NCBI RefSeq assembly: GCF_000518285.1
Contig: NZ_JADH01000008.1
Location: 1 to 56,778 of the forward strand
Direction of reading: 5' to 3'
DNA from: Williamsoniiplasma lucivorax ATCC 49196
GTDB taxonomy: Bacteria; Bacillota_I; Bacilli_A; Mycoplasmatales; Mycoplasmataceae
DNA: 56,778 nt
The position numbers were made by a program, and so were the translations under genes. Shown piece after piece: positions 7,044 to 43,725 of this stretch (positions within the stretch are counted from its first letter, which is position 1; every line of letters starts with the position of its first letter). The notes beneath the pieces were generated by a model. That model did not search any database. It was given only the letters and a program-made list of their open reading frames with translations, and was not told the origin of the DNA.

Positions 7044-7676
7044 TTAAGCTTTTTCGAATTCCGCCATTGCTGTAATAATTTTTGCTTTCAATTGTGTCAA
7101 TTCTATATCAGTCACACCTTTTTTAGAACCAATTTTATCAGCCTCTATCAACACTGCGGCAAGTTTGTCCTTAACTTCTTGTGGTTTGTTTTTTCCTTGA
7201 GACAACATTTCCCCAGCTTTTCTACCTTGATCCATAAAATCTTTAAAAGTTTTAGTAGCTTCTTTAACTACAATGGTAAAAGTTTCAATAGTCTTTTTCT
7301 CAGGCAAAGGTTCTTGGGAAGTATTTTGTGATGTTGTTTGTTCTTTGGGTTGACCGACCAATTTTATATTGATAGTTCCTGCTTGTTTGGCATAAAAATG
7401 TATAAAATTTGTCTTGGGTTCACCAGGATCACCAGAATTTAATAATACATTAATTTTTTCATCAACTAATCCTGTTTTGCCTGACTCAACCACCTCTTCA
7501 ACAGTTATAGTTCCATAAGCGTATTTGCTTAAATCTTGATTAATTGTTTGCTGGATGTATTGTCAAACCACCCAATCTTTGTTTGCATTTGTGTCGCCTT
7601 TAGCACATGCAACTACTGTTGTAGCTGTAGTTGCAATCATTCCAATAGCACCTAGTAATGATAATATTTTTTTCAT
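7044..7676 (-). CDS. Lipoprotein, 210 aa
   Basis: The signal peptide MKKILSLLGAIGMIATTATTVVAC ends in a lipobox with Cys24, so the protein is predicted to be lipid-anchored outside the cell. The mature part has a region of QTTSQNTSQEPLPEKK linker and a C-terminal helical segment (FKDFMDQGRKAGEMLSQGKNKPQEVKDKLAAVL...) that may form a coiled coil. It has none of the A/B repeats of the other lipoproteins, but its promoter region is a near-identical inverted copy of that of the 18955 lipoprotein gene. Function unknown; a surface role is inferred. Confidence 0.85.
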
Positions 7677-7703
7677 TTTCTCTCTCTTTTACCTTTATAA
7701 TTC

Positions 7704-7747
7704 ATTATATATATGGTTATGAAATGGTTTCATAACAAAGAAGTAGG
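7704..7747 (-). promoter_or_regulatory. Lipoprotein promoter with conserved upstream element and palindrome
   Basis: The minus strand carries CCTACTTCTTTGTTA (7733-7747), a 23-bp spacer, then TATAAT (7704-7709). The spacer start forms a perfect palindrome, TTATGAAACCATTTCATAA, overlapping the end of the conserved element. The distance is too long for an ordinary -35 box, so the element may be an operator or activator site (inference). Confidence 0.6.
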
Positions 7748-7812
7748 TTCAACACTTTCTTGAGAAAAAAACATTATTTATTATTAAAATATCTACCTGC
7801 AAATTTATTAAA

Positions 7813-7839
7813 AAGCACACCAAATATTTTGGTGTGCTT
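7813..7839 (-). terminator. Intrinsic terminator after the 7888-9429 membrane protein gene
   Basis: A 12-bp perfect stem, AAGCACACCAAA/TTTGGTGTGCTT, with a 3-nt loop. It is part of the inverted block shared with 18791-18957. Confidence 0.85.
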
Positions 7840-7887
7840 AAGTGTTTTTTATTATATTTTGTATACTTAGAGAATTATATTCAAAGA

Positions 7888-9429
7888 TTATTCTTGAGTT
7901 GAATTTTTGTCTTTTTTATCTTTGCTGAATTTTTTATTTCATCAAGCTTTAATTTTCCATTGTCGAGGATTTTTATTTTTAGTGTTTGTTGGTTCATCAA
8001 AAAGTGATGGATCCATTTCATAAGTTTGTCCTTGACTCATTGCCATCATCACTTTTTGGTATTCAGTGTTAGCACGCATCATTTTATCACGATCAACTTT
8101 CGGGTTTAAAATTAAAATTGTTAACCCTGCAACCATTGAAAGAGAAATTAAGACCACACTCATAATTGCAAATATAGACTCAATATTCAAACTTTTTCCA
8201 TAATCACGAATAATTAAATTTCAAAGTTCATCAAAATGAGGTGTTACTGTGTTGTTTCAAACAGGTCCACCTTGTTTGTTCTCACCAGCATGAAAAATAT
8301 TATATTTTCCTAAAAGAATTTTAATATTACTTTCACTGACTAAATTAATCACTGAAAAGATTGACATTACAAAAAAGAAAATCATAAAGATAACTGGCAT
8401 AATGCTAATTCTATATTGTTCTCTTGTATTTCTTGGTTTTCTAAAAGCCATCATTCCGATATAAACAGCTGGTAAGATGAAGAATAAGAAATTAAAAATA
8501 CTTCTAAAGCCAACTTCATTTAATGGAATAAAATTATTAACCAACTGACCTTTATCAAAACTCTCTCATGCTCAAGCATTTAATATTTCATCTCATCCAG
8601 CTTTATCTGTGGGTAATGTGTCAAGACCTAAAAATTTTAATCAATATTCAGCTGGTAACTTAATTTTAATGGTCATTAAATAAATATTATTAATTACTAA
8701 TAATAAAGCCGTTAGAATTACAATGATCGCTAAGATTTTTTTAACCACTGGCATTCAATTAGGTTTAGCATTGTAAGGATAGAATCTAGCATCTTGCGTT
8801 GGATGCAATGGCATTTGTCCATAACCTTGCTGTTGCTGTTGACCACCAAAGCCACCAAAACCACCGAAAAATCCACCTTGACGACCACTATTTTGATTTG
8901 TATTTTGATTTTGATTTGTGTTTTGATTATTATTTGTAAACTCGTCTTGTTTATTTTTAGTAGCTTCTTCAGCTCTTTTATCAGCCTCTTCTTTAGCTTG
9001 GCGAGTTTTTTCTAAATCTTTATATTTAGCTTTAATATCATCATTCATCATTGCTGAATAAATAATGTCTTCTTCGGTAATTTTAATTACATCATCAATC
9101 AATTCATTACGACCAATTTCAAATTTTTTAATTGTATCTGATAAAAATGCAGAATATTCACCATAAATATCTTCAATATTCTTAGCAACCTTTTCAAATC
9201 TTTGTTTTGATTCGGTAATCTTAACAATTGCTTTGGCAAAAGTTGGGGCTCATTGATGGTCGTCTAGATTAGCATCAAAATCTTTTTCTAAAGTTAACAT
9301 GTTGTTAATTTGAGAAATAAATTGATTACGGAAATCACTTTTATCAACAATCTCAAATCGTAGTCTTTCATTTTTAATAATATTTAATGAAAGATAAACA
9401 AGACTCCTGTAAACTTTCTTAGCATCCAT
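7888..9429 (-). CDS. Multi-pass membrane protein with Gln/Asn/Gly-rich linker, unknown function
   Basis: 513 aa, rejoined across several TGA-Trp codons. The first 150 residues are a soluble helical domain (LEKDFDANLDDHQWAP..., charged RQAKEEADKRAEEATKN coiled coil). A low-complexity segment rich in N, Q and G follows (TNQNQNTNQN, then GGFFGGFGGFGGQQQQQGYG). The C-terminal half has about five hydrophobic segments, including KILAIIVILTALLLVI, FRSIFNFLFFILPAVYIGMM, MPVIFMIFFFVMSIFSVI and IESIFAIMSVVLISLSMVAG. I do not recognise the family. The start at 9429 has AGGAGGG and lies inside the end of holA (11-bp overlap), so the two are translationally coupled. Confidence 0.8.
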
Positions 9430-10396
9430 TATTTAGCCCTCCTTGGCTGATTAGTTTAATTAACTCATACTCTGGAATAATGATTGGGTCAATTTCACCA
9501 GTGACAATTCGTTTAATTATATTGTACAACATTTTTATTTTATCATTTAATTGAGTGATTGAGTTGTTCTTTACTGTCATTAACATTTTTAACCGATAAG
9601 CATTGACCCCAATTTTTTCAGCAATCGCATTATTGGCATAACCTTGTTTTTGCAGAATCAAAGCATCTCTTAAAATACTTAAATTATTTCCCATTAAAGT
9701 AAATAAACCAATATTATCTAAATTAAAGATTTTATAATTTTGATATTGGACAATAAATTTGTTGAGATCATTGGTTAAAAATTCATTGACCAATTGGAAA
9801 ATATCATATTCATAAAAGTGGGTGGTGTTTTCTTTAACATCACCCAAAGTGATGTTTTGTTGCGGCAACTTTAATAATTTATTAACTTCTAAACTCATGA
9901 TTTGCATTTCATTTGGTAAAACCCGTACGAGATATTCGACAGCTTCTAGTTCAATCGTTTTATTTTTACGCAAAAAACTTTGGGTGAGATATTTTTTAAT
10001 CGCTGGTTCATCTAACTTTTTAATGTAATCCACTTTTGCCTGTTCTTGAAATCATTGACCAATTTTTAAACGATTCGATAACTTATCGGTTTCAAGAGTA
10101 AAAATTAAAATGTTATTTTGGTTATAACCTTTTTTTAAAGTTTCTCAAAAAACATTAACATCAAAAGTTTTGTGTAACGCCACTTTTTTTTCAGTGACAA
10201 ACCAAGCATCTTTTAAAACAACAATTTTTTGGTCATTAAAAAAAGAAAATGTTTGAATTCCATCAACAATTTCACTCATTGTATTTTCAATAAATGAATA
10301 TGTTTCAACTTCCAAATTATCAGCACTTAAAGATTTAATCATTTTCTCAAGGTGTTTTTTGAGTAAAAAATTATCATCCGAATAAAGAAAAAACAT
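9419..10396 (-). CDS. holA: DNA polymerase III delta subunit
   Basis: 325 aa, matching HolA length. HolA opens the beta clamp as part of the clamp loader. Sequence conservation in this family is low; the best match is the C-terminal helical collar pattern ...LTLMGNNLSILRDALILQKQGYANNAIAEKIGVNAYRLKMLM... and the final IKRIVTGEIDPIIIPEYELIKLI, together with N-terminal FFLYSDDNFLLKKHLEKMI. I placed the start at ATG 10396 because AAAGGCGG lies just upstream; an in-frame ATG at 10414 lacks a ribosome site. In many Firmicutes holA lies between comEC and rpsT; here these two are 12 kb away. Confidence 0.8.
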
Positions 10397-10499
10397 GTCT
10401 AACCGCCTTTTCATATTATTCTAACAAATAAACCAGAGCATTCGACTTTTTTGCTTGATTTTTTTCATGAGTTCAAGATGTTTCAATTTAAAACACCTC

Positions 10500-10595: not shown

Positions 10596-10640
10596 CCTAC
10601 TTCTTTGTTAGGGAGGGTTTATGAATTGAAATTTTATAAT
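10596..10640 (+). promoter_or_regulatory. Lipoprotein promoter with shared upstream element
   Basis: CCTACTTCTTTGTTA (10596-10610) is identical over 15 bp to the elements at 7733-7747 and 18884-18898. A 24-bp spacer leads to TATAAT (10635-10640), 26 bp before the start codon of the 1264-aa lipoprotein. The palindrome seen in two other copies is absent here. Confidence 0.6.
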
Positions 10641-10665: not shown

Positions 10666-13600
10666 ATGAAAAAATTACTAGGGATATTATCGGGTTTATT
10701 AATAACTGGAGGGACAGCTATGACTGTGGTGGCATGTGGTTTGCGTGTTGATGTTGACGAAAACTATGACATCTCCAAAATTAAAATTAATAACATTAAA
10801 GTTGGTGATTCTGAACAAAGTGTTTTAAACAAAATTCAAGAAGCAATTCGTAGTTTGTATCTTTGAGCAGAAAATAAAGTAGATTATCGTATTGAAGGTT
10901 TAGAACTTTTATTGACTAAACAGATCATTACTAAACAAGGAAGTATTAGTGTTGTTGGGATTGGCAAATTTTTACAAGGCGGAGTGATTATCGAGATTAG
11001 TGACACTGGTTCAACTACCAAACCAATTCATCCAAGTCCAATTGATCCCCCAGCGACTGAAAAAATTAGTATTGCTGGGATTCAAATTAAGAACATTCAT
11101 CGATTAACTTCTCTGGAAGTCGTTAAACAAAAAGTTCATAAAAACATTACTGCTCGTGCTAAAGGTGCTGTTTTAGGAATTGATTATAATATTGCTGGTC
11201 ATCCACAACATGATCAAGAAATCACGATCCAAGCGACTGAGACAAGTAAATGAATTAAAGATGAATTTACTATTCAAGTGCAAGCAGAACCAAGTCATAA
11301 TCTTTCAGATATTGAAATTGATAATGTTAAAGTTGGTGATACCAAAGAGAGTGTGTTAGTCAAAATTCAAGAAGCTGTGCGTGAATATTATGACCAAGCC
11401 CAAATTGATCTTGATTACACTGTTAAAGGTTTAGATGCATTGGTCGAAAATAATCACATCAAAGCTGCTGGTAGTGTCCATATTCAGGCCCAAGGAAAAA
11501 ATTTAACTGGGGGATTTATTTTATGAATTCGTGATTCAGGTTCTACAACTGAACCAATTGATCCAGCAAATCCAACTCAACCAATTAAATTAATTGATAT
11601 TTCAATAATGACAGTTACAGGTGTTGATAGTTTAACAACACTAGCCCAAGTACGAGAAAAAGTTGCTGAAGCGATGGTGGCACATCAAGCTGGTGATGCT
11701 CTTTTAGGAAGAGATTATATCATTCAAGGAACACCACAAGATGATAACCAAATTATTGTGCGAGCAACTCATGAAAGTAAAATTATTACTAATGCTTTCA
11801 CGATTAATGTTGAGCAACATCTTGCTCAAGATATTTCCAACACCGAAATTAATGATATTAGAATAAATGATTCTGAAGAAAGTGTTTCAGCCAAAATTAA
11901 AAAAGCAATTCGTAAATATTATCCCCAAGCCCAAAATAATATTGATTACACTGTTACTGGTTTAGATAGGTTAGTGGAAAATCATCAAGTTGTTCATGAA
12001 GGAAGTATCAACATCCAAGCTCGAGGGCAACGTTTAACTGGTGGGTTTACCTTATGGATTCGTGATTCGGGTTCAACAACAACTCCAATTGATCCAAATA
12101 ATCCAAACCCACCAGTTAAATTATTTGATATTTCAACAATTAGTGTGACTGGTGTTGATAATTTAACCACGCTTAAAGCACTTGAAGCAAAAGTAGCAAC
12201 AGCAATTGAAAATGAGGTTCCTGGTGCTGTTTTAAAAACAGATTATATGATTGAAGGGACCCCACAACAAAATCAACGAATCACTGTGCGAGCAACTAAG
12301 GATAGTAAATTAATTAAAAACTTCTTTACAATTCAAGTAAAAAATTATGTCAAGCAAGATATTTCAGAGATTGAAATTACAAATATTCAACTTCAAGATT
12401 CTAAATCAACAGTTTTAGACAAAATTCAAAAAGCAATTCGTAAATATTATGCTCAAGCCCAAATTAATCTTGATTACACTGTTAAAGGTTTGGATCAATT
12501 ATTACAAAACGGACTGCTTGCTCACCCAGGAAGCATTCATGTGGAAGCTGAGGGGGAACGTTTAAGTGGTGGATTTGTTTTATGAGTGCGTGATTCTGGT
12601 TCAACAACAAATCCAATTGATCCAAATCCAAATCCACCAATTAGATTATTTGACCTTTCACAAATCGTGATTAATGGAATTAATAAATTCACACCTATGA
12701 ATGAAGTTAAACAAAAAGTTCAAACAGAAATCCAAAGAAAAGCACCAGATGCTAGTTGATCAAAAGATTATCAAATTCAAGGTGATCCGCAAAAAGATAA
12801 AAAAATTATTGTATCGGCCACTGAAAATAGTCGATGACTTTATAACTCATTCACTATTCTTGTAGAACAAGATGAGAAATTAGATATTTCAGATATCCAA
12901 ATCCATAATGTTAAAGTTGGTGATGCAAAGAAAAGTGTTTTAAATAAAATTCAAAATCAAATTCGTAAATTTTATGCAGAAGCAGTCTTAGATACAGATT
13001 ATGTAATTAATGGTTTGTCAGCTTTAACTGAATCAGGGGAAAATATTGTTCACCAAGGAAGTATTAATATCAAAGCTAAAGGAACAAATTTAACTGGAGG
13101 ATTTGCTTTGTGAATTCGTGATTCAGGTTCAACAAGTGAACCAATTGGCTCTGAAGAAAGACCAATTAAATTAAAAAATCTTGCTAGTTTACAAAATAAA
13201 ATTACGGATGTGAATCATTTAACAACGATGGATGAACTAGAAGTTAAAGTTGAAAAAGAAATCATCAAGATAGCTGATGGTGCGATTTTGGGAGATGATT
13301 ACACAATCATCGGAACTCCTCAAAATAGTCAAAAAATCATTGTCCAAGCGACTGAACATAGTCGATGACTTTATAACTCATTTACTATTGATATGAAGCA
13401 ATATCAAAAGGCAAATATTTCCAACATTTATATTTCTAATGTTCAAGTTGGTGATGCAAAGAAAAGTGTTTTAAATAAAATTCAAAATAAAATTCGTGAA
13501 ATTTATTCAGGAGCAACTCTCGATAGGGATTATCAAATTATAGGACTAAATGAATTAGTTCATAGTGGTGTCGTTGTTAGTCCAGGAAGTGTTAATATTA

Positions 13601-14460
13601 TCGCTAAAGGTGATTATTTAACTGGAGGATTTGCTTTGTGAATTCGTGATTCGGGTTCAACAACAAACCCAATTGATCCAACCAATCCCACTCCACCAGT
13701 AAAATTAATGGATATTTCTGATGTTTACATTGCCAATGTCAACAATGAAACTAGCATGGATGATCTGAAAAGAAGAGTTCATCAAGCAATTAATCAAAAA
13801 GCAGTCGGGGTTGTTGAAGACATTGACTATACAATTGAAGGTACTCCACAAACAACAAATCAAATTAAAGTCAAAGCTACTTCAACAAGTAAACTAATCC
13901 AAAATAGTTTTGCAATTGAAGTCATGCAAGTCAAGTTTGATATTTCTAACATTGTTTTTCCTAAAATACCAAGTTCAACACCTATGGCTTCGCTTATACA
14001 AATGGTTTATATTTACATAAGCAGATTAGCACATGGAATTCAACTGGGTAGAGATTTTATTGTCTCAGGAGAAATTGAACCTGGATCAATTTTATTTGTT
14101 GATGCACTTCCCGGTAGTCAGTTAATCAAAGGTTTTTTCACAATTTTTGTTTATGATGATATCCCAGATCCTAACCCACCAATAGATCCTAACCCACCAA
14201 CAAACCCTAATGATGGGACTTTAGTTAGTTTAAAAAATGATTTACAAAAGCTTTTAAATAGTATTCCTTGAACAAATAATATTACTTATTTTGTCCAAAG
14301 ACTCCATGAAGAAATGCGTAAAAATCCTAAATTTAACAACATAGAAGTTTATGCGTCTAGTGGTATTGATCCATACAATAGAGGTTTTGGTTTTTGAAAA
14401 AATGTACCAGGAAACAAAGAACCTCATCTTTATTTAATATGAGGAAATCCAGTCCAATAA
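10666..14460 (+). CDS. Giant repeat lipoprotein, alternating A-B modules (1264 aa)
   Basis: The signal peptide MKKLLGILSGLLITGGTAMTVVACG has a lipobox Cys. The rest is built from six A-B pairs plus a final B-like unit. Module A (about 95 aa): DIS.I.I.NIKVGDS..SVL.KIQ.AIR.YY followed by DYTV.GLD.LV, GSI.I.A.G..LTGGF and a linker W(I/V)RDSGSTT.PIDP. Module B (about 78 aa): TGVD.LTTL, KV...I, GA.L..DY.I.GTPQ, RAT..SKLI.N.FTI.V. After the array come the proline-rich segment PDPNPPIDPNPPTNPN and an 80-aa C-terminal domain ending ...YLIWGNPVQ. About ten TGA-Trp codons, mostly in the linkers, hide the gene under the standard code. It is presumably a long surface fibre; adhesion or antigenic variation is inference. 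Confidence 0.88.
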
Positions 14461-14499
14461 AGATTAAAACAATAAAATTAATTTAATTTAGACAAATTA

Positions 14500-14533
14500 A
14501 AGCAAATCTTGTAACAAGATTTGCTTTTTTTTG
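14500..14533 (+). terminator. Intrinsic terminator after the first repeat lipoprotein
   Basis: A 12-bp stem, AAGCAAATCTTG/CAAGATTTGCTT (14500-14511/14515-14526), with a 3-nt loop and an eight-T tail. Confidence 0.85.
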
Positions 14534-14558
14534 TAAGTTTAAGCAGTGCGATTTGCCT

Positions 14559-14602
14559 CCTATTTCAATGTTATCTTTTAAACAAAAAGGTAAATATATA
14601 AT
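14559..14602 (+). promoter_or_regulatory. Lipoprotein promoter with diverged upstream element
   Basis: CCTATTTCAATGTTA (14559-14573) differs at three positions from the element upstream of three other lipoprotein genes. It keeps the exact 23-bp distance to TATAAT (14597-14602). A strong AAGGAGG follows at 14611. Confidence 0.5.
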
Positions 14603-14627
14603 GGAAGTGTAAGGAGGTTTGACTAAA

Positions 14628-17600
14628 ATGAAAAAATTATTAGGATTATTGTCAACTTTTGTAATCGGAGTAGGAAGTGTAGCCACGGTTGCAGCTTGTG
14701 GTATTCGAATTGAGGAAGTTATTAGGCAAACTGATATATCAAACATTGTCTTAGCACCTGTCAAAATAAATCCCAATCTAGAAGTACTAAAAGCGAAAAT
14801 TCAAAAGAAAATCGAAGAAAAAATTCCCGGAACCAAATTAGGAGTTGACTATACAATTGATGGTAGTTTACAACAAACTGGTTTTATCCGCATTAATGCT
14901 ACAATTTCAAGTAAATTAATTAAAGGTTACTTTCCAATTATGGTAACTGATAATGCTCAAAAAAATATTGCTATGATTGGCATTACCAATCTTAAAATTG
15001 GGGATAGTAAAGCTGATGTTTATGCTAAAATCCATGAACAAATCCAACTTTTATATCCCGATGCAGAATTAAATCAAGACTATCAAATTGCAGGATTAGA
15101 GCAATTACTCCAAAATGATCAAATTGCTTTTGCTGGAGCTGTCCATGTCACTGGAATTAGTGATTATCTAAGTGGTGGTTTTGTTTTATCAATTTATAAA
15201 TCAAATTCAACAACTACACCACTAGGCGCACAATCACCCCAACCAGGTAAAATTACCAATATTTCAACGATTAGCATGATTGATGTTAAAGTTGGTGATA
15301 CTCAAGCTAGTGTTTTGGATAAAATTCACCAAAAAATTCGCGAATTTTATCCACCAGCAACGATCACTAAAGATTATCAAATTGCTGGATTAGATCAATT
15401 AGTTGTCGATGGTAAGGTTGCTTTTGCTGGCAGAATCAATATTAAAACAACTGGTAAATATTTAACTGGTGGTTTTGTTTTAGTGATTCGTCAATTAGAC
15501 TCAACTACCCAACCACTTGGTGATAATCCAGCTGCCCCAACAAAATTAACTGACATTTCTAGTCTAAGTTTTTCAGATATCAAAATTGGTTTATCAAAAA
15601 ATGAAGTTTTACAAAAAGTCTTTGGCAAAATTCAACAATTACATGGTCAAGCTAAGTTAGATCAAGACTATCAAATTGTTGGTTTAGACCAATTAGTTCG
15701 CGATGAGAAAATTGCTTTTGCTGGCATTGTTCATCTTTTAGGAATTGGTGATTATTTAACTGGGGGAGTTGTGATTAGAATTTATAAAAATAATTCCACA
15801 ACCGATCCAATTCCACCACATCCAAATCCACCAAGTAAATTGACAGATATTTCTCAAATTCAAATTAATGATGTCAAAGTTAATGAAAGTAAAATAAGTG
15901 TTTTATCTAAAATTCAAAAGCAAATTAGTGAATTTTATCCCCAAGCTCAAATTAATCAAGACTATCAAGTTCATGGTTTAGATGATTTAGTTCAAGAAGA
16001 TAAGATTGCTTTTGCTGGAAGTATCCATATTAAGGCCAGTGGTAATGTTTTAACTGGTGGGTTTGTTTTAACTATTCGTCAAGGAAACTCAACAACAAAA
16101 CCATTAACTAACCAAACAAACCCACCAGGTAAAGCACCAATTATTTCTGATGTGACAATTGGGGATATTAAAATTGGGGATAGTCAAGACCAAGTTGAAG
16201 CCAAAATCTTGGAAAAATTACAAGCTTTATATCCTGATGCCAAATTAAATCAAGATTATCAAATTCAAGGTTTAGAGCAATTAATGAAAGATGGTCAAAT
16301 TGCCTTTTCTGGAACTATTCATGTTGTAGGGATTGGTGATCACTTAACTGGGGGAATGGAAATTACTATTGATAAATTAAGTTCAACATCAAAACCACTC
16401 GGTTTAAATCCAACCCTACCAATGAAATGAAATGACATCTCAAATATCCAAATTTATGATGTAAAAGTAAATGACACTAAACTAAGTGTTTTAGCTAAAA
16501 TTCAAAAGCAAATTGCAGCAATTTTTACTAAGGCAAAAATTAATCAAGACTACCAACTTGATGGCCTAGACCAACTTATCGAAGGTGATAAAATTGCTTT
16601 TGCTGGTAATGTGCACATTAAAGCATTTGGTAACGATTTAACTGGTGGATTCATTTTGTTTATTCGTCAAACAGACTCAATAACCAAACCATTAGCTGGT
16701 CAAACAAACCCACCAGGTAAAATGCCAATTGTTTCTGATGTTACAATCAATGACATTAAAATTGGTGATACTAAAGCCCAAGTTGATGCGAAAATCTTGC
16801 AAAAATTACAAACTTTATATCCTCATGCAAAATTAAATCAAGATTATCAAATTCAAGGTTTAGAGCAATTGATGAAAGATGATCGCATTGTCTTTACTGG
16901 AACTATTCATGTTGTAGGGATTGGTGATCACTTAACTGGGGGAATGGAAATTACTATTGATAAATTAAGTTCAACATCAAAACCACTTGGTTTAAATCCA
17001 ACCCCACCAACAAAATTAATCAACATTTCAAATATTAAAATTCATGATGTGAAAGTTAGTGATGTTAAGCAAACTGTTTTAAATAAAATTGATCATAAAA
17101 TTAGTGAATTTTATCCACAAGCAAGAATTAATCGTGACTATAAAATTGAAGGTTTAGACGATTTAGTTCAGGAAGATAAGATTGCTTTTGCTGGAATAGT
17201 GCATATTAAAGCACTTGGTAAACACTTAACTGGTGGATTTGTTCTCGCTATTCATCAAACAGGCTCAACTACTGAAGTGCTAACTCCAAACTCAGCACAA
17301 ATAGGTAAATTAATTAGTATCGATCAAATTGAAATTAAAGATATTAAAATTGGGAATCTTTTAGTTGATGTGAAAGCTAAAATCGCTGCCAAAATTCAAA
17401 CTTTATATCCTGATGCACAATTAAATCAAGATTATCAAATCGAAAGTCTAGAGGCTTTAATTCAGGGAGATCAGATTGCTTGAGCAGGACAAATTAATGT
17501 GCATGCTATTGGTAATCATTTAACTGGAGGCGTGGCGATTAGCATCAATAAAACAGGTTCAACAACTAACCCGATTACCCCAAATACTCCAAAACCAGGT

Positions 17601-18710
17601 CGCTTAACTAATATTTCTGACATTAAATTAGCTGATGTTTATTTTGGTGATGCTGTGGATCGTGTTTTAGCAAAAATTCAAAACCAAATCAGTCAAATTT
17701 ATGAAAATGCAACTCTGGACAAAGATTATCAAATTGATGGATTAAATGAACTTGTTCGCAATGGCAAAATTAATGACTACGGAAACATTAATATCAAAGC
17801 GATTGGAGATAATTTAACTGGCGGATTTGCTTTATGAATTCTGCAATCAGGTGCCATCACTGAACCACTTGGATCTCATAATGCTCTCCCAACTAGATTA
17901 AAAACTATTAGTCAAATTGTCATTGATGATATTAATAAGAACACAAGTATGGAAGTTATTCGTCAAAAAGTGCAAGCAAAAATTGCTGAAATTGTTCCTG
18001 GAACTCAATTAGATGTTGATTACAACATTGTTGTTGATAGTGACCAAACAATTTCGGTGTTTGCCCTTCTGCAAAGCCGTCTCATTAAAGACGCCTTTGA
18101 AATTAAAATTAAGAAGAGTGTTGTGGAAGCCGATTTAAATATTGAAGTTTATCTTGGTGATACTGTCACAATTATGGAAATAAAAATTGAAAAAATATTA
18201 GAGGAAAGATTTAAAATTCCAGCCACACTACAAAGTTATAGAGTGCCTTGGCATGAAGTATATGATTTAATGGATTTGAAGGAATACAAGTTTAATAAAA
18301 CAGGAATTATTCACGTGAAAGGGATTGATGAGAGACTCCCAAAAGAATTTACTGTTACTGTTGTGGCAAATCCAAATCCACCAAAACAACCACCAGGTAA
18401 ACCACCAGGTAAACCAATTGTTACTAATCCTGATGCTAAACCCGAACCAATCGAAACATTGAGATACGATTTGCAATATATGCTTGATCAAATTTCGGTT
18501 TATCCAAGTTTCCCATTAGTGAACCAATTGTGGACAAGATTAAGAGCCGATCCGGCATATGATGGAATCAACGCTAGAGTTGAAGATAAAGTTTCCGATC
18601 GAGGAAAAGCTGTTGTTTTTGAATCAACAGATGGACGATATACAGGTAAATTAACCTTATATTGAAAAGGTCGCGTTGTTACATCAGACCCAACCCCTGG
18701 TGGTGGTTAA
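14628..18710 (+). CDS. Giant repeat lipoprotein, B-A(x10)-B architecture (1360 aa)
   Basis: I chose ATG 14628 because AAGGAGG (14611-14617) is well spaced; a TTG at 14619 would be too close. The signal peptide MKKLLGLLSTFVIGVGSVATVAACG carries the lipobox Cys. One B module is followed by ten consecutive A modules (each with KI...(I/L)YP.A.L.QDYQI.GL..L, IAFAG, LTGG and a S(T/I)T(K/Q/E)PL linker), then another B. The C-terminal region has VEADLNIEVYLGDTV..., the proline-rich PPKQPPGKPPGKP and a final domain ending GKLTLYWKGRVV. A modules 4-8 show a two-module super-repeat of 588 bp. Likely a surface lipoprotein; no enzymatic motif seen. Length variation by recombination between modules is expected (inference). 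Confidence 0.88.
16311..16987 (+). repeat. 588-bp super-repeat inside the 1360-aa lipoprotein gene
   Basis: Positions 16311-16399 and 16899-16987 look identical by eye at an offset of exactly 588 bp, which is two A modules. Flanking parts of the modules are also very similar. The pairing of A5 with A7 and of A4 with A6/A8 shows recent duplication of two-module units. Confidence 0.85.
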
Positions 18711-18790
18711 AAAAAAATTTAATCTTGATCGCTACTAGTTTTTAAAAACTTGTCAACAAAAGATGTAAAAATTTTATAATCAAAATTGTT

Positions 18791-18822
18791 TTAAGCACAC
18801 CAAAATATTTGGTGTGCTTTTT
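18791..18822 (+). terminator. Intrinsic terminator after the 1360-aa lipoprotein gene
   Basis: A 12-bp stem, AAGCACACCAAA/TTTGGTGTGCTT (18793-18804/18808-18819), is followed by T residues. The same hairpin lies inverted at 7813-7839. Confidence 0.85.
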
Positions 18823-18883
18823 AATGAATTTATAGCCAGATATTTTAATAATAAATCATGTTTTTTTTGAAGAAAGTGTTGAA

Positions 18884-18927
18884 CCTACTTCTTTGTTATG
18901 AAACCATTTCAAAACCATATATATAAT
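18884..18927 (+). promoter_or_regulatory. Lipoprotein promoter with shared upstream element and imperfect palindrome
   Basis: CCTACTTCTTTGTTA (18884-18898), 23 bp, then TATAAT (18922-18927). The palindrome TTATGAAA...TTTCAAAA has one mismatch compared with the copy at 7704-7747. Confidence 0.6.
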
Positions 18928-18954
18928 GAATTAGAAAGGTAAAAGTGAGAGAAC

Positions 18955-20400
18955 ATGAAAAAATTAATCGGATTATTAGCTAGTTTGTTTGTTATGAGCG
19001 GGACTGTGACAACTGTTGTGGCTTGTGGAACATATATTGAAAAAGAAAGCATTGAAAATGATATTTCCAATATTATAATGGAGGCTGTCATTGTTGATAC
19101 TAATTTCGATGAAATTAAAGCACAAATTGCTAGTGAAATTGCTAGTGAAACTAATGCTCAAGCAAGATTAGGGATTGATTACAAAATTAATGGTAATACT
19201 GATCAACCTGGAAAGATTGTTGTGCAAGCAACACCTGAGAGTAATTTAATTACAGGTAGTTTTAATATTGCGGTGGTTCAACCAGTTGATCTTGGCAGCA
19301 TCACCATTAGTGATATTAGAGTTGGTGATTCTAAGGTTCGTGTTTATCAAAAGATTGATGAACTACTTCATTACTTTTCTGATGGTCATGACATTTATTG
19401 GAATTATGAAATTCTTGGTTTAGATAATTTAGTTGAAGGTGCAAATATTGCTTATGCTGGAAGTGTGCATGTTATTCCTGCAGGACCATATTTAACTGGT
19501 GGATTTGTGTTATGAATCGACCATATTGGTTCAAAAGTTGAAGTTCTTGATGCTCAAGCAAATCCACCAGTCAAATTACAAGATATTTCCCAAGTAACAG
19601 TGGCTGATATTCAAATTGGTGAAACACTAGAATCAATAAAAAGCAAGATTCACCAACCAATTCAAAATCTATGACCAGATACTCCATTAGTTTTCGATCA
19701 AGATTATGAAATTAAAGGTTTAGAAACATTGGTGGAAGAAAATAAATTAATTCATCAAGGAAGTATTCATGTGGTTGGAAAAGGTCGATACATAACAGGT
19801 GGTTTTGTTTTAATCATTCGTCAAACGGGCTCAACTACTGAAGTGTTAACTCCTGAAACAACCCCACCAACTAAATTAGCAGATATTTCACAAGTCCAAA
19901 TCAATGATCTTCAGATTGGGGATACAGTAGAAGAAATGGATGACAAAATTTATCAACAAATTCAAAAGTTATTACCAAATACTTTATTAAGTTCAAAGCA
20001 AGATTATGAAATTCTTGGTTTAGCAGCCTTGGTTGAGGAAAATAAATTAGTTCATGAAGGAAGTGTTCATGTAATTGCAAAAGGAAACAAATTAACTGGT
20101 GGGTTTGTACTATGAATTCGCCAAACTAGTTCAAGTACTGAAGTGCTTGCCAACAATGCTGGTAAACCAACTAAATTACAAGATATTTCACAAGTTCAAA
20201 TTAAAGTTAATCGTAAAATGTCAAGCAAAGAATTGCATGAAAGAATTCAAAAGAAAATTGATCAAGTGATTAGCAATACCCAAATTGACATTGATTATCA
20301 AATTGAAGGTACCCCAGAAAATAGCGAACAAATTATTGTTCGAGCAAGTAATACAAGCAAATTAATTAAAGGTCAATTTGTGATTACGGTGAGTAGATAA
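18955..20400 (+). CDS. Repeat lipoprotein, B-A(x3)-B architecture (481 aa)
   Basis: The signal peptide MKKLIGLLASLFVMSGTVTTVVACG has the lipobox Cys. One B module (ARLGIDYKINGNTDQPGKI...SNLITGSFNIAV) is followed by three A modules (each with DY/NYEI.GL..LVE, GS(I/V)HV and (L/I)TGGFVL) and a terminal B (IDYQIEGTPENSEQIIVRAS...LIKGQFVITV). There is no extra C-terminal domain, so this is the minimal version of the architecture. Linkers carry GSTTEVLTPE instead of the GSTT.PIDP of the first gene. The next gene starts 60 bp downstream without a terminator, so they are likely cotranscribed. Confidence 0.87.
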
Positions 20401-20460: not shown

Positions 20461-21624
20461 ATGAAAAAAAATATAAAAATATCAACGATGTTATTTTGGG
20501 TATTCTTGATTATTAGTTTAATTGCACTTTTAGTTGGAATTTTAATTAAGTGAGCCAATATCAATACGTCACACATCGAAACCTGAACAATTAGTAATAT
20601 GTTCTCCCCACTTAAAGGCAATAGTTGATCAATTGGTAATGCATTCCCATTCAAATGAATAGGAAATAATTGAACAGTAGTGGGAGAATTTTGATTTAAT
20701 GGTAATCCGATTAATCCATCTAACTTTGTTTTTAACATTATTGCCAACTATGCTATTTTAATCGTGTCAACAGTTTCAATGGGATTAGCTCTAATTGCTT
20801 TAATCTTCTCATTTGCAGGATCATCGACTCAAAAACCAACTAGTGAAACAGTTGTTCACGAAATTAAAAATGAAACAAATAATCCTAATCCAATTAATTT
20901 AATTTTTAATAACCAACCAGTGCCCAATGTTTTTCACACATCTGAAGGGGCAGGTAATTATGGACAAACAATTGATCCCAAAGATTTAAATCGTTTTAAA
21001 AACCCAGATCCAATTCCAACTCCAACACCAGTTCCGACCCCAGAACCAGTTCCGGCACCAATTCCAACACCAGTTCCAGCACCAATCCCCACACCAATTC
21101 CAACCCCAAAAGAAATGAGCCACTTCCAATTTCCTAAAGAACCAGAAGTGCCTGTAGCACCACTAATCAATTTTGAGGAATCAATTCCTGATAATAATAA
21201 TGTTTATGATTATTTATCACAAATTGAAGCAAAATATGCCTTGGAATTAAAACAACAAGAAATGGCTGAAAAGTTAGAAAAAGCGAGATATGAAGAAGCA
21301 TTAAGAAATGCTGCTCAAGATCACGAAAGAGAAAAAATTTTGGAAATGTTTGAGAATTCAAGATTACAAAGAAAACAAATGTCTGTCCAAGAACGTGCCA
21401 AAATTGATGGATCAGCAATCATTGTTGAACCACGAAGTGATTTACAAAAAAATGCTAATAAAATGCGTTCATTAGTTAACCCTAGTCATAAAACACTTTA
21501 CAATGCCGATTTACGTGCCATGACTAAAAGAGAGTTAATTATTTACATGCGAAAAGTGGCTAATGTGATTAATGAACAAATGACTTCATCAAGTGAAAAT
21601 GAATTAACTTATAGTTCAAACTAA
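20461..21624 (+). CDS. Membrane protein with two TM helices, proline-rich stalk and coiled coil (387 aa)
   Basis: I do not recognise this family. TM1 is LFWVFLIISLIALLVGILI; a 65-aa Trp/Asn-rich loop (NMFSPLKGNSWSIGNAFPFKW...) follows, then TM2 (IANYAILIVSTVSMGLALIALIFSFA). A PIPTPTPVPTPEPVPAPIP-type stalk of about 45 residues comes next, then a charged helical region (LELKQQEMAEKLEKARYEEALRNAAQDHEREKI in part) and a C-terminal RDLQKNANKMRSLVN-like part. With N-in topology both the stalk and the coiled coil would be cytosolic (inference). Being in the same transcription unit as the 481-aa lipoprotein it may anchor or organise surface proteins, but this is speculative. Confidence 0.8.
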
Positions 21625-21787: not shown

Positions 21788-21833
21788 ATTATTTGTGTTA
21801 GCAATCATAACATTAATCAAAGGAGTTGAAAAG

Positions 21834-22079
21834 ATGGCAAATATTAAATCACAAGAGAAAAGAACAAAAACAAATGAAAAATCACGTTTAGCTAATAAAT
21901 CTTTAAGATCTGAAGTTAAAACAGCAATTAAAAAAGCTATGATTGCAAAATCTGAAAATGCTGCAAACAAAGATGAATTAATTAAAGATGCAGTTTCTTT
22001 AATCGATAAAGGTTATTCAAAAGGAATTATGAAAATTAATAAAGCAGCTCGTGAAAAATCACGTTTAATGAGCATTTAA
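21834..22079 (+). CDS. rpsT: 30S ribosomal protein S20
   Basis: 81 aa. The start is ATG 21834 (MANIKSQEKR) because AAAGGAG precedes it; longer frames upstream would put a hydrophobic stretch before a well-known N-terminus. The pattern KSQEKR...K...RLANKSLRSEVKTAIKKA, KDAVSLIDKGYSKGIMKINKAAREKSRLM matches S20, which binds 16S rRNA helices. It stands alone with its own promoter-like box and terminator, next to comEC in convergent orientation. Confidence 0.96.
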   Translation: MANIKSQEKRTKTNEKSRLANKSLRSEVKTAIKKAMIAKSENAANKDELIKDAVSLIDKGYSKGIMKINKAAREKSRLMSI

Positions 22080-22092
22080 TTCTTCAAGTCAA

Positions 22093-22123
22093 AAAATATC
22101 TCCATTACTGGAGATATTTTTTT
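22093..22123. terminator. Bidirectional terminator between rpsT and comEC
   Basis: A 12-bp stem, AAAATATCTCCA/TGGAGATATTTT (22093-22104/22109-22120), with a TTAC loop and A/T runs on both sides serves both convergent genes. Confidence 0.85.
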
Positions 22124-24215
22124 ATGTTCAATGATTAAACCGATGCTTGTGCAAGTTATAAGTTCAGTTATAATCATGACCAGTTAATTGGTATTTAAAA
22201 TGATATCTATTCAACATTTCAAGGGTCACTTGATCAGGAAATTGATGTTTATTTTTGAGACCAGCACTAATTCAAGACATTCTTGGGTTGACCAAGAGTA
22301 AGAATGTTTCACTCGTGCTCGTTTTACTTCCATGATGACCGATTTGCAACAAATCAATTGTCGTATTTTTAATTAAATAGACAAAGGTCTCGTTTTTGAG
22401 CAATTCAGCTTCACTAGTTTTAGTTAAATCGCCAGTAAAGAGCAAGTTACGATAGAGAGTTTTAACTAAAATAACTAATGAATTGTCATTTTCATCAGAC
22501 ATTTGTTTTAAATGCCATAACCAAATTTTGACTCCTTTGAGATTAATGAAGTTTTGGGTTGTATCATTTTTAATGACTTTATGCACATGAAGATTCTCTT
22601 GAACAGTCGCTAAACTATTATAATGATCTTCGTGATTGTGGGAAATAAAAGCAAGGTCAATATGATTAATCCCATTTTTAACTAAATAGTCACTTAAACT
22701 ACTTTTGTTAAAACCAGGACCAACTCCAGCATCAAAAATTAAAGTGAGATTTTTTCATTTATTAATGTAAACAAAGCTCGAACCGTTGCCAATGTTTAAC
22801 ATGATTAAATTTTCATTTGGTAAAAATACTTTGGTTCAGAATAAAAAAAGAAGTGTAATAAGTGTCCAACTAAACCAAAGGATTTTACTGTTTTTATGTC
22901 TAAGCAAAACATAAAAACATAAATAGTATGTGATGAGCATCAAGAATGGAGGTTGCCCAAAATTTCAAATTAAATTAATTTTACTTAATAAACTAATCAA
23001 GCTATCAAATGCATTGCTTAAAAAATCCAAAGCAACTTGAAACTGTGGTATTCACCAAAAAAGAAATGAAAAGACGTATAAGAAGGAAATCACAGGTTGA
23101 ATTAGGATTGTTTGTATGGGAGCTGAAAAATTCCATTTTCAATCCAAATAAATTTGCAAAGGTACAAAAATGAAGAGGGGTTTTGCAATTTGAATCACTG
23201 TTTTTTTCCAACCAAGATAATTTCTCATTGGTGTTAAGAAAACCATCGCAACAATTAAGAATGGTCATGAATTTGTTACAAAGAAATTCGGGTTGACCAA
23301 AACTAAAGACAATAAAGTTAAAACGTTGCGATGAGTTTTTGTGAGGTTAACATGTCCAATAACAAAAGCATTGGTAATAACATAACCAAAAATTACTCTT
23401 GTCATGATTAAGGGAAATCCGACGATTCATAAGTAAAAAAATAAAAAAACATGAATCGGGATTTTGAAATGTGGGTGAATTTTATATTTAAAGAAGATGT
23501 GATTAATGCTGAAGGCAAAAATGTACATATTAGCACCACTTAAATTCAATAAGTAAGCTAAACTCATTTTGTGAAGTGCACCTTTAATTTCATTAAGTTC
23601 AGTGTTTTTTTGAAACACCAGTTTCAAAATTAAATCATTATGCACATGACTGGAAATATATTTGTTCACCAAAAACTTTAAATTGTTGGTAGGGAGAGCT
23701 ATGATGTTTTCAGTTTTAAGTGTTTTAAAAACATTTTCTTGTTGAAGATACTTGTTAAAATCAAAATCATAACTATTATTTGTTGGTTTTAAATTTTCAA
23801 CAATGCCGGTTATAGAAAGATTTTCGCCAACTAAATAATGATGATCCATCGCTAAAACATAAAATTTATTGAACTGATATTGAGCAATAAAATAGTTTTT
23901 TGATGTTTTAACAACTTTAAAAGTTGTCTGATGAAAATGCAAATCAGCACCAAAATGAGTTTTAGTGAGGAAAAAATAAGTTAAATAAACTAGTACGACA
24001 ATAAGGAAGACAAGACCTAAGAATCATCTTTGCTTAATTTTTAAACTGATATAGCAGCATTGTAAGATGAGAGAAGTTGCTGCTAAGATATATAACTGAA
24101 GACTGAACAACCACAAAGTTAAAACCAATAATCCAAATAAAACCAAAAATGGATCAATGTTTCTAATCTTTTTGTTGAGTTGCAGTTGCTGGAATTTTAT
24201 TTTGATGATTTGCAT
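22122..24215 (-). CDS. comEC: ComEC/Rec2-type DNA channel protein
   Basis: 697 aa. N-terminal TM helices (FLVLFGLLVLTLWLFSLQLYILAATSLIL) precede a soluble OB-like region, a competence domain with many TM segments (LLNLSGANMYIFAFSINHIFF, MTRVIFGYVITNAFVIGH), and a C-terminal metallo-beta-lactamase domain with LNIGNGSSFVY, FDAG, the metal motif SHNHEDH, GDLTK and IGHHGS. ComEC forms the channel for single-stranded DNA uptake in transformable bacteria. Metal-binding residues appear intact here. I see no other competence genes nearby. A track reading frame at 23005-23268 is only a shadow. The start overlaps the 42-aa ORF upstream by 53 bp; no strong ribosome site, so the start is uncertain. Confidence 0.9.
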
Positions 24216-27702: not shown

Positions 27703-29997
27703 ATGAAAAAACTATTAGGCCTATTAGGGAGTCTTGGCTTAGTTTCAACAAGTGCAACTGCTGTTGTCTCTTTCGTAAAAATACCAAAAGACAATGACTC
27801 TAAAACAATAGATAAAGCACAATTAGAACAGTTAATTAATGAAGCTAAAAAATTAGCAACTGAAAACCAAGACAAAAATAATGAGGCATATCAAGCATTG
27901 CATAAAGCAATTGGAGAAGCTAATGGAGTTTTAGTAATTTATCAAAACGAAACAGAAAACCCAGGTGTTTTAAAAGAAGCACATGAGAAATTAGCAAAAG
28001 CAATGAATACTTTTACGGGTTCTGTGGATACTCCGGCAAATACAGTTGCTCTTGTACAAAGAATTAAAGATGCTAATAAAATTTTAACTGCATCTGTAAA
28101 TAATTCAAAAAGTAAAGAAGATAAAGAAAGATTACAAGTAGCAATTACAGCAGCTGAAACTCTTAAAGCTCAAAACCTAAAAATTAGCGAACAAGATAAA
28201 GTTAATGCAGGAGTTCAAACCTTGCAAACTGCCACACTTGCATTTTTTAACGCCGCTGACCAACCTGCAAACACAGCAGAACTAAAAGCAGAAATTGCAA
28301 ATGCTAAGAAAGCTTTAGAAACAGAAAAAGCTTTTGAAGCTATGGAGAAATTAAAAGGAGAAATCGCGTTAGCTGAAGAAGTTATTAAAGCTAACTATTC
28401 ATCAAGTGACGAAGGCCAAAAAATTGTTGATGATGCAACTGCAAGATTAAAACAAGCAATCAAAGACTACGCGAATGCAGGTCAACCAGTACTTCCTGAC
28501 GATCATGTTGATCTAAAAGCTTTAAGAGATAAAATTAAAGAAGCTAAAGATGTTGCAAGCGATCCAAAACGTAAACATAAACCCTTATCAGAACGTATTA
28601 AAATTGAAGAAGCAATTGGACATGCAGAGGGAATCATTGCTGGTAAACCAGTCGTTGGTCAAGAAAAAGAAATTCAAGCTGAAGTTACAGCCTTGCAAAC
28701 TGCCATGGACACTTTTATTAATGAACCTAATCAAAAAGCGGAACTTCATATGTTAGATGCAAACATTAAATTAGCAAAAGGTGTTGATAAAACCAAGAAA
28801 AAACCTGATACAGTCAAAACTTTTGAAGCAGCTATCAAAGCAGCTGAGATATTAGCAGGAACTAAACCAGACATTGATAAACAAGGTGATATTGATAAAG
28901 GTGCTGAAACTATTTGACAAGCAACTTTGACTTTTTTAAATTCAGCTAATAAAATTAATATTAATCATGTAATTTATAATGGACTTAAACTAGATGGTGT
29001 TTTCAAAAATCTAACTGATAAAAAAGCAATTGGTGAGCAAATAAAGAAACAATTTCCAAACGTTACTGATACAATTGATTTCTCAATTGGAACAGTTAAA
29101 CAAGCAAATAAGGATCACAAATCAAATGCTGAAATAACTGGAATAGGAGATTATCAGGCAATAACCAATGTTTATTTTGTTTTAGATCTTAAATTTATTG
29201 AAAAGAAACTTAATGATATTGTTAACACAAAAAAAGATGCAGCTTGGACAGCTGCTGAATTAAAAGCTGAAATAGAGAAAAATAATTTAGATGTTAAAGA
29301 TGGTTTAAAAGTAACTCAAATCGATAGTAAACCTAATCTTGAATTAGCTAAATTTAAAATTACAACAAATAACCACTATGATTATAGTGGTTATCAAGGT
29401 GAAGTAATTATTACTCAAGGTTCAAAAACTACTTAACATACTAGGTATATTGATGCAAAGACTGGTGAAGCAAAAGAAATCAAAAATGGACCAGCTCCAG
29501 AAGGAACAAAAGAAATTCTTCATCTTGGATGAGATGTTAAAACTGGAAAAGCATATAAAGTTCCTGTAAGTATTGAAAGAGTTCCAAATTATATTAGCCC
29601 AAAGATAACTGATTTAAGCAATGTCTTTGAATATGCTGCTAATTTTAATAGAGATATTTCCAAATAAGATACATCAAATGTAACAAATTTTGCAAATTTG
29701 TTCAGAGGAGCTAAAGCATTTAACCAAGATATTTCAAAATGAAATACTGTAAAAGTCACAAATATGAGAAATGTTTTTGATGGAGCAGAAGCATTTAACC
29801 GAGATATAAAGACTGTAGGTAATAGTTGAAATGTTTCGAATGTAACTGATATGTCGAGTATGTTTTGAGGTGTTAAAGCATTTAACAGAAATATTTCAAA
29901 CTGAGATGTTAAAAACGTTAAAAGCTACGATAAATTTGATGAGCAAGCAAATTCTAATTGAAAAGCAAACTACAAACCTCAATTTAAAAAAGCTTAA
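27703..29997 (+). pseudogene. FIVAR-DUF285 surface protein, interrupted by two in-frame TAA codons
   Basis: Intact it would encode 764 aa. The signal peptide MKKLLGLLGSLGLVSTSATAVVSF has Phe where the lipobox Cys is expected. Five FIVAR-like helical repeats follow (e.g. AYQALHKAIGEANGVLVIYQ; IEEAIGHAEGIIAGKPVVGQ), then two alpha/beta domains (residues about 420-575), then DUF285/BspA-like repeats (AFNQDISKWNTVKVTNMRNV). The first TAA at 29434-29436 ends the product at 577 aa, before the DUF285 part; the second, at 29665-29667, replaces the TGA-Trp of ISKWDTS. The downstream part remains in frame to 29997, so the gene broke recently. The 577-aa product could still be secreted. Confidence 0.8.
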
Positions 29998-30075
29998 CAA
30001 CTTATTTTAAAAATTTATTAAGCTTAATCATGTATTAATCTGAGTATGAATTTCGTATACAGAAAGGCGCACATA

Positions 30076-42970: not shown

Positions 42971-43725
42971 TTAATTTACAATTTCATAATCATCATTTGA
43001 TTCAATTACTGGTTCATCTTGACTTATTTTCAATCTTTTAGATTCTTCAATGATATCTTCTTTAAATTGGTCATAAAACAAGTTAGTAGTATCATCAACA
43101 GACAACTCTTTAAAGTACTCTTCACTTGATTGACTAACAAAAGATATGTATTCTTTTCGTTTTGTTTCTTTAATGATTAAAGGAGCCAAGTCATGTTGTA
43201 AACATTGAAAAATCATAAGACTTCTTCCGGTTCTTCCATTTCCATCTTGAAATGGATGGATAGATTCAAACTCTAAATGAAAACTTATAATTTTTTTATA
43301 TTTTTTTTCTACTGATAAATTATCAATATTTAATGATGCAAATTTATATAAAAGGTTTTCAATTAAAGGATGGATATTTTTGTGTGATGGTGGAATTGTG
43401 TTTGAACCAGCAACTAAAACATCATGATCTCTAAATTGACCAGATACAATACCTTTAATATTGCTAGTCAAAGTAAAATGAATGTCTCTTATTAAATCTT
43501 TAGACATAGTTTTATTATGACTTAAAGATTTTTCAATAAAATTTTAAGTAAATTCATAGTTTTGAACCTCATTTAATTCACGAAATTAACAGATCTGTTT
43601 GGGGTTTTATTATCTAATAATAAACAATAAGTTTCACCAAAAGTTAATGTGTTACCTTCGATGTGAGATGAGTTAAAGGCATCTCTTAATTTTAAATCTT
43701 CTAAATATTTTTTTGTTAATTTCAT
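42971..43725 (-). pseudogene. Fic-domain protein, broken between inhibitory helix and catalytic domain
   Basis: The N-terminal piece (43725 to a TAA at 43573) begins MKLTKKYLEDLKLRDAFNSSHIEGNTLTFGET; SSHIEG fits the (S/T)xxxE(G/N) inhibitory helix of class II Fic proteins. One base is missing near 43582, and the next frame (RELNEVQNYEFT, stop, NFIEKSLSHNKT) leads into an open frame from ATG 43507 (178 aa). That frame contains the complete motif HPFQDGNGRTGR (catalytic H84). Fic enzymes transfer AMP to hydroxyl side chains. If the 178-aa frame is translated it would give a catalytic domain without its inhibitory helix; no ribosome site is visible before 43507. Confidence 0.8.

What the first reader, a model, noticed from the sequence alone, without database searches (positions are those of the whole stretch)
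10666..20400. A modular A/B repeat lipoprotein system with three architectures
Three neighbouring genes are assembled from two related domains: (A-B)x6 plus B, B-A(x10)-B and B-A(x3)-B. Both modules share the core DY.I.G and a closing strand (LTGGF or SKLI.N.FTI), so B looks like a shortened A. Terminal B capping in two genes suggests B acts as an end or docking unit for a fibre. I do not recognise a named family for these modules, and the variation in number and order suggests a surface-length or antigenic variation system.
Basis: partly seen in the sequence, partly recalled or inferred. Interest (0 to 1): 0.75.

Follow-up and report, generated by a model that had tools for sequence, protein, structure and literature searches.

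The report
Tandem spiralin-domain surface lipoproteins
Three neighbouring genes of an insect-type wall-less bacterium encode long surface lipoproteins built from many copies of one already named domain, spiralin, in two versions, one of which is a locally evolved longer variant; the arrangement is unusual in detail but of a known kind.

Summary
B is the ordinary, widespread spiralin domain; A is an elaborated version (extra GLxxLV loop, Pro-rich linker), found at strong scores in only 2 of 60 genomes of the family. AlphaFold models an A-B pair at mean pLDDT 97.

Best mechanism: surface stalks or adhesins related to the lectin spiralin, lengthened by duplication. Current length or antigenic variation is not supported here: repeats are only 56-79% identical in DNA, though a congener has units up to 100% identical. 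Strains could not be compared.

The parts
10666..14460 (+). Gene 1, lipoprotein: signal peptide, (A-B)x6, B, Pro-rich linker, D cap
   Evidence: 13 Spiralin stretches in Pfam, E=5.8e-131
10768..14166 (+). 13 modules of gene 1; A at 10768, 11299, 11830, 12358, 12883, 13414; B at 11065, 11596, 12127, 12652, 13177, 13711, 13939
   Evidence: coordinates; 12 of 13 listed over the Pfam cut-off (the last B at 13939 is not in the printed part of that list)
14215..14457 (+). D cap domain of gene 1
   Evidence: leave-one-out profile match E=1.1e-4; no Pfam match
14628..18710 (+). Gene 2, lipoprotein: signal peptide, B, A10 = (A'A'')x5, B, degenerate module, Pro-rich linker, D cap
   Evidence: 12 Spiralin stretches, E=9.3e-90
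14964..17903 (+). Ten A modules of gene 2, each 294 nt, alternating in two subtypes (588-nt unit)
   Evidence: even-step identity 52.8% against odd-step 42.1%; permutation p=0.008, the least possible for 5+5 splits
18132..18440 (+). Degenerate long module and Pro-rich linker before D in gene 2
   Evidence: weak A-profile match, 8 bits
18441..18683 (+). D cap domain of gene 2
   Evidence: leave-one-out profile match E=5.2e-6; predicted helix-helix-three-strand fold, pLDDT 78
18955..20400 (+). Gene 3, lipoprotein: signal peptide, B-A3-B, no D
   Evidence: Spiralin E=5e-38; signal peptide model NF045726 19.4 bits, cut-off 19.3
10596..10610 (+). Shared promoter element CCTAYTTCWWTGTTA, 70 bp before the ATG of gene 1; TATAAT 31 bp before the ATG
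14559..14573 (+). Same element, 69 bp before the ATG of gene 2; TATAAT 31 bp before the ATG
18884..18898 (+). Same element, 71 bp before the ATG of gene 3; TATAAT 33 bp before the ATG
14499..14527 (+). Terminator-like hairpin after gene 1 (13 pairs, then T-run)
18793..18819 (+). Terminator-like hairpin after gene 2, seen by eye
   Evidence: sequence; not listed by the scan
9419..10414 (-). holA, left boundary of the insertion
   Evidence: TIGR01128 E=4.2e-51; close to comEC in six relatives
21831..22079 (+). rpsT (ribosomal protein S20), right boundary of the insertion, followed by comEC at 22122-24215 (-)
   Evidence: gene name from sequence similarity to the small gene between comEC and holA in three congeners and from general knowledge

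Best explanation
The three genes encode membrane-anchored, outward-facing lipoproteins whose bodies are strings of spiralin domains (PF05215). An ancestral spiralin domain (type B) gave rise in this lineage to a longer version (type A) with an extra loop and a Pro-rich linker; two-module units (A-B in gene 1, A'-A'' in gene 2) were then multiplied in tandem. The string works as a rigid or semi-rigid stalk that carries binding surfaces, and in genes 1 and 2 a distal D cap domain, away from the wall-less cell, most likely for adhesion to host surfaces as described for spiralin, a lectin. Shown: sequence family, module order, lipobox, shared promoter element, lineage restriction of A, insertion between rpsT and holA. 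Inferred: surface display, stalk geometry, and sugar or host binding.
For: Pfam Spiralin for all three proteins and for isolated A and B modules. A-B pair predicted as two compact alpha/beta domains with a confident junction, mean pLDDT 96.8, pTM 0.84. Lipobox signal peptides. Relatives place the same A/B strings in front of other repeat modules or a DUF285/PARCEL domain: ABAB-C-C-DUF285 in the own genome, (AB)x5-D-D and BABABA..-C(n)-..-D in a congener, which fits a stalk carrying exchangeable outer parts. Spiralin of Spiroplasma citri is reported as the major surface lipoprotein and a lectin for insect glycoproteins, needed for efficient transmission (PMC4804543).
Against: No binding or localisation data exist for these proteins. 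I found nothing that says which part of spiralin binds sugar, so domain membership does not prove lectin activity. Fold searches gave only weak matches (best VIA Z 4.4 for A-B, 5.3 for D), including sialic-acid-binding streptococcal adhesins at Z about 4, which may be chance. Gene 3 lacks the D cap.
Confidence: 0.65

Rival explanations
1. A length- or antigen-variation system: module numbers change often by unequal recombination, giving strain-specific surface lengths.
For: Module number and order differ among the paralogues and between two species. In the congener, four of five AB units are 86-90% identical and C units up to 100%, which points to recent duplication. A 190-bp inverted repeat (91%) links the 5' regions of gene 3 and of another lipoprotein gene at 7676.
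Against: In the window the repeats are 56-79% identical in DNA, poor substrates for recombination; no simple-repeat tract beyond a short ATATATA was seen in the promoter regions and each gene has its own promoter element. Inversion over the 190-bp repeat would carry holA along.
Confidence: 0.15
2. Self-assembling coat: the tandem modules pack side by side into a regular surface layer or fibre on the wall-less cell, and B modules dock molecules to each other.
For: Spiralin is reported to cover the entire S. citri cell surface (PMC4804543); regular two-module units in genes 1 and 2; the first B of gene 3 is position-conserved across species (98/94).
Against: No assembly evidence. B is not confined to the ends. 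Fold search hits to S-layer self-assembly domains were weak (8bt9, Z 3.1).
Confidence: 0.12
3. A novel, unnamed domain family.
For: A modules match only 65 of 81 Pfam positions; NCBIfam's spiralin-repeat model scores below its cut-off (37.8 against 45).
Against: Isolated A modules score 37-38 bits against a Pfam cut-off of 25, and 17 of the 19 A modules and 10 of the 11 B modules are listed over the cut-off in the genome search.
Confidence: 0.03

Closest known systems
Spiralin (Spiroplasma citri; Pfam PF05215, NCBIfam NF038030)
   Same: Same domain family, lipoprotein signal peptide, expected surface location
   Different: Spiralin of S. citri is a 26-28 kDa protein (PMC8779666); here 5, 12 and 13 modules in proteins of about 480 to 1360 residues, with an elongated A type. 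The equivalog model NF038030 matches far below its cut-off (28.5 of 140 bits)
Spiralin repeat-containing proteins (NCBIfam NF038028)
   Same: Spiralin repeats in a lipoprotein; gene 1 matches in four stretches, best in a B module (37.8 bits, E=1.9e-9)
   Different: Below the curated cut-off of 45 bits; A modules carry an insertion and Pro-rich linker
PARCEL / DUF285 (PF03382) surface lipoproteins of Mollicutes
   Same: Tandem-repeat surface lipoproteins (PMC2996958); fused to A-B-A-B and C modules in one gene of the same genome (locus L069)
   Different: Different 25-residue repeat; not present in the three genes studied
ScARP adhesins of S. citri
   Same: Repeat-bearing surface adhesins in a related genus (PMC3485318, title and abstract only)
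   Different: Not compared by sequence here

Membership tests
Spiralin domain PF05215 | Match to the Pfam profile over the gathering score | tested here: met
   Isolated A 38.3 and 37.1 bits, isolated B 60.7 bits, cut-off 25; whole proteins E=5.8e-131, 9.3e-90, 5e-38
Spiralin domain PF05215 | Coverage of the whole domain | tested here: inconclusive
   B covers profile 4-80 of 81; A covers only 4-68 before its insertion
Spiralin lipoprotein equivalog NF038030 | Score over 140 bits | tested here: not met
   20.1 bits (gene 1) and 28.5 bits (gene 3); gene 2 not listed
Spiralin repeat-containing protein NF038028 | Score over 45 bits | tested here: not met
   37.8 bits (gene 1) and 19.3 bits (gene 3); gene 2 not listed
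Mollicute lipoproteins | N-terminal signal peptide with lipobox cysteine | tested here: met
   MKKL...TVVAC, TVAAC, TVVAC; NF045726 passes for gene 3 (19.4, cut-off 19.3) and is just below for gene 1 (17.3)
Spiralin-type lectins | Binding of host glycoproteins | not testable with these tools
   Needs purified protein; reported for S. citri spiralin (PMC4804543)
Phase- or antigen-variable lipoprotein systems (Vsp, Vsa, Vpma type) | Module number or expression differs between isolates or within a culture | not testable with these tools
   Only one genome per species is held

The most novel reading that the evidence does not exclude
The A module is a lineage-specific, functionally new version of the spiralin domain, and the two-module unit (A-B or A'-A'') is the working repeat of a periodic extended adhesin under a common promoter element shared by several lipoprotein genes.
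Probability: 0.2. Interest if true: 0.5.

Novelty: new variant of a known kind. Interest (0 to 1): 0.33.

Why it matters
Spiralin is a classic surface lectin of insect-borne mollicutes, and no relative of these modules was found by sequence among solved structures. A confidently modelled A-B pair gives a testable picture of the domain, and the gene cluster shows how a small wall-less genome builds proteins of more than a thousand residues from one domain of about 75 residues. The finding corrects a claim of an unnamed family rather than opening a new one.

Tried and rejected
No MreB match in the own genome passes the family cut-off and the best scores 75 bits, against 7 matches, the best 322 bits, in one relative; this speaks against Spiroplasma and for an Entomoplasma/Williamsoniiplasma-like genus, but that name is from memory.

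Fold searches with the A-B pair (PDB, VIA, viral) and with D (PDB, VIA) gave no match that can be trusted; sialic-acid-binding adhesins, chitinase domains and S-layer pieces at Z 3-4 are noted only. Sequence search of solved structures with the A-B profile: nothing better than E = 0.2.

Search for long inverted repeats as a promoter switch inside the cluster: only short chance-like pairs. The idea that the shared promoter element is the -35 box was dropped: its end lies about 23 bp before TATAAT. One literature item on Spiralin B was not held.

Full report
Check of the observation. The window uses TGA as tryptophan: the three genes are open from end to end only in code 4. Each protein begins with a signal peptide ending in a lipobox cysteine. 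A and B are related: hhalign E = 6e-12, and each type's profile finds most of the other type. Mean identity is 52% among the A modules of gene 1, 37% among its B modules and 21% between the two.

Family. Pfam's Spiralin domain (PF05215) matches the three proteins at E = 5.8e-131, 9.3e-90 and 5e-38, the three modules scanned alone (two A, one B) pass the cut-off on their own, and 27 of the 30 modules are listed over the cut-off in the genome search. B matches profile positions 4-80 of 81, A only 4-68. The alignment shows why: A has extra residues around the segment after DYxIxG (GLxxLVxxxxIxxxG) and a Pro-rich tail of about 18 residues. PF05215 occurs in 18 of 40 relatives, whereas strong matches to the A profile (79 bits or more) occur in only 2 of 60 genomes of the family, the own genome and one congener, G003. 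So A is best seen as a derived spiralin domain, not B as a shortened A. Two other congeners have one and no spiralin match.

Hidden structure. In gene 2 the ten A modules alternate: modules an even number of steps apart are 52.8% identical on average, an odd number 42.1% (permutation p = 0.008, which is the least possible with 126 ways to split ten modules 5+5), and the tree agrees. Genes 1 and 2 therefore both consist of two-module units, A-B and A'-A''. The first B of gene 3 groups with the first B of two long lipoproteins of G003 (support 98/94), and the first A of gene 1 leans towards the first A of another gene of the same genome (85/83) and the A modules of G003, so the first modules seem to keep their place while the later ones multiply within each gene.

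The C-terminal end. Genes 1 and 2 end, after a Pro-rich linker, in a domain of about 75-80 residues (D) that closes three long lipoproteins of G003 as well; with either window copy left out of the profile it is still found (E = 1.1e-4 and 5.2e-6). D is related to a further repeat, C (hhalign E = 2.4e-7), present in 8 and 11 tandem copies in two G003 proteins, twice in the own A-B-A-B-C-C-DUF285 protein (locus L069), and weakly in three other window proteins. D gave no Pfam match and the C tract no convincing one. AlphaFold gives D a helix-helix-three-strand fold at pLDDT 78 from two sequences.

Structure of the modules. An A-B pair was predicted from 18 window sequences at mean pLDDT 96.8 and pTM 0.84: each module has one helix and a small sheet, and the junction is confident too. 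No solved structure matches at a level to be trusted.

Control region and setting. The same 15-base element, CCTAYTTCWWTGTTA, lies 70, 69 and 71 bp before the three ATGs, with TATAAT 31-33 bp before the ATG. The own genome has 8 exact copies; besides these three, one precedes another lipoprotein gene at the same 71 bp spacing (ATG at 7676), one the A-B-A-B gene (69 bp), one another lipoprotein gene at 87 bp, one a stretch that looks like a decayed lipoprotein start, and one no clear gene. With up to one mismatch there are 12 copies against 2 for the reversed pattern. The pattern was drawn from the three genes themselves, so the weight lies on the further copies and their spacing. A terminator-like hairpin follows gene 1, another seen by eye follows gene 2. 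In five of six relatives holA and comEC lie 436-480 bp apart, 1629 bp in the sixth, and in the three congeners the small gene rpsT was read between them; in the window rpsT and holA are separated by the three genes and one membrane protein gene. The cluster is therefore a lineage-specific insertion at this place; the A/B genes of G003 lie elsewhere in its genome.

Variation. Repeat units within the window genes are 56-79% identical in DNA; in G003 four of the five AB units are 86-90% and C units up to 100% identical. Module number thus changes between species and paralogues, and recent duplication is visible in the congener, but nothing here shows present-day switching in the window genes. Strain comparison was impossible because one genome per species is held.

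How it probably works. By membership of the spiralin family, lipobox and modular form, these are surface stalks or adhesins. Spiralin of S. citri is reported as the major surface lipoprotein, a lectin that binds insect glycoproteins, and needed for efficient transmission (PMC4804543). That the same A/B strings stand before D, C or DUF285 parts in different genes suggests a carrier role for A/B with exchangeable outer parts. This last step is inference.

Noticed in passing
window 7652-7841 and 18791-18979: Inverted repeat of about 190 bp, 91% identical, covering the region before and the first codons of gene 3 and of a 210-residue lipoprotein gene on the other strand (ATG at 7676); these are the only two copies found in the genome.
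   Followed up: partly
L069 2979-5567 (own genome, contig 8): A lipoprotein with modules A-B-A-B-C-C followed by DUF285/PARCEL repeats: spiralin domains fused to another surface repeat family.
   Followed up: partly
L065 7182-12527, residues 770-1321: Six tandem C repeats in a congener, 91-100% identical in DNA, three of them 100% identical: recent expansion.
   Followed up: yes
L065 12437 and 18543 (- strand): Two long neighbouring lipoprotein genes of the congener share identical 100-bp upstream stretches and signal peptides; a run of about 16 A follows a TTGACA-like box in both, the kind of homopolymer that can slip and switch a promoter.
   Followed up: no
window 27703-29436, 30046-32478, 32532-35393: Three large proteins, two with DUF285/PARCEL repeats, with weak C-module matches: further members of the modular surface set.
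   Followed up: partly
L092 4503 (- strand; own genome, contig 8): A copy of the shared promoter element precedes a signal-peptide-like start that runs into a stop after about ten codons, apparently a decayed lipoprotein gene.
   Followed up: no
window 20461-21624: Membrane protein with a Pro-rich tract, with paralogues in the own genome and matches in five of six relatives searched; no clear terminator was seen between gene 3 and it.
   Followed up: partly
window 42971-43507: Fic/DOC family gene.
   Followed up: no
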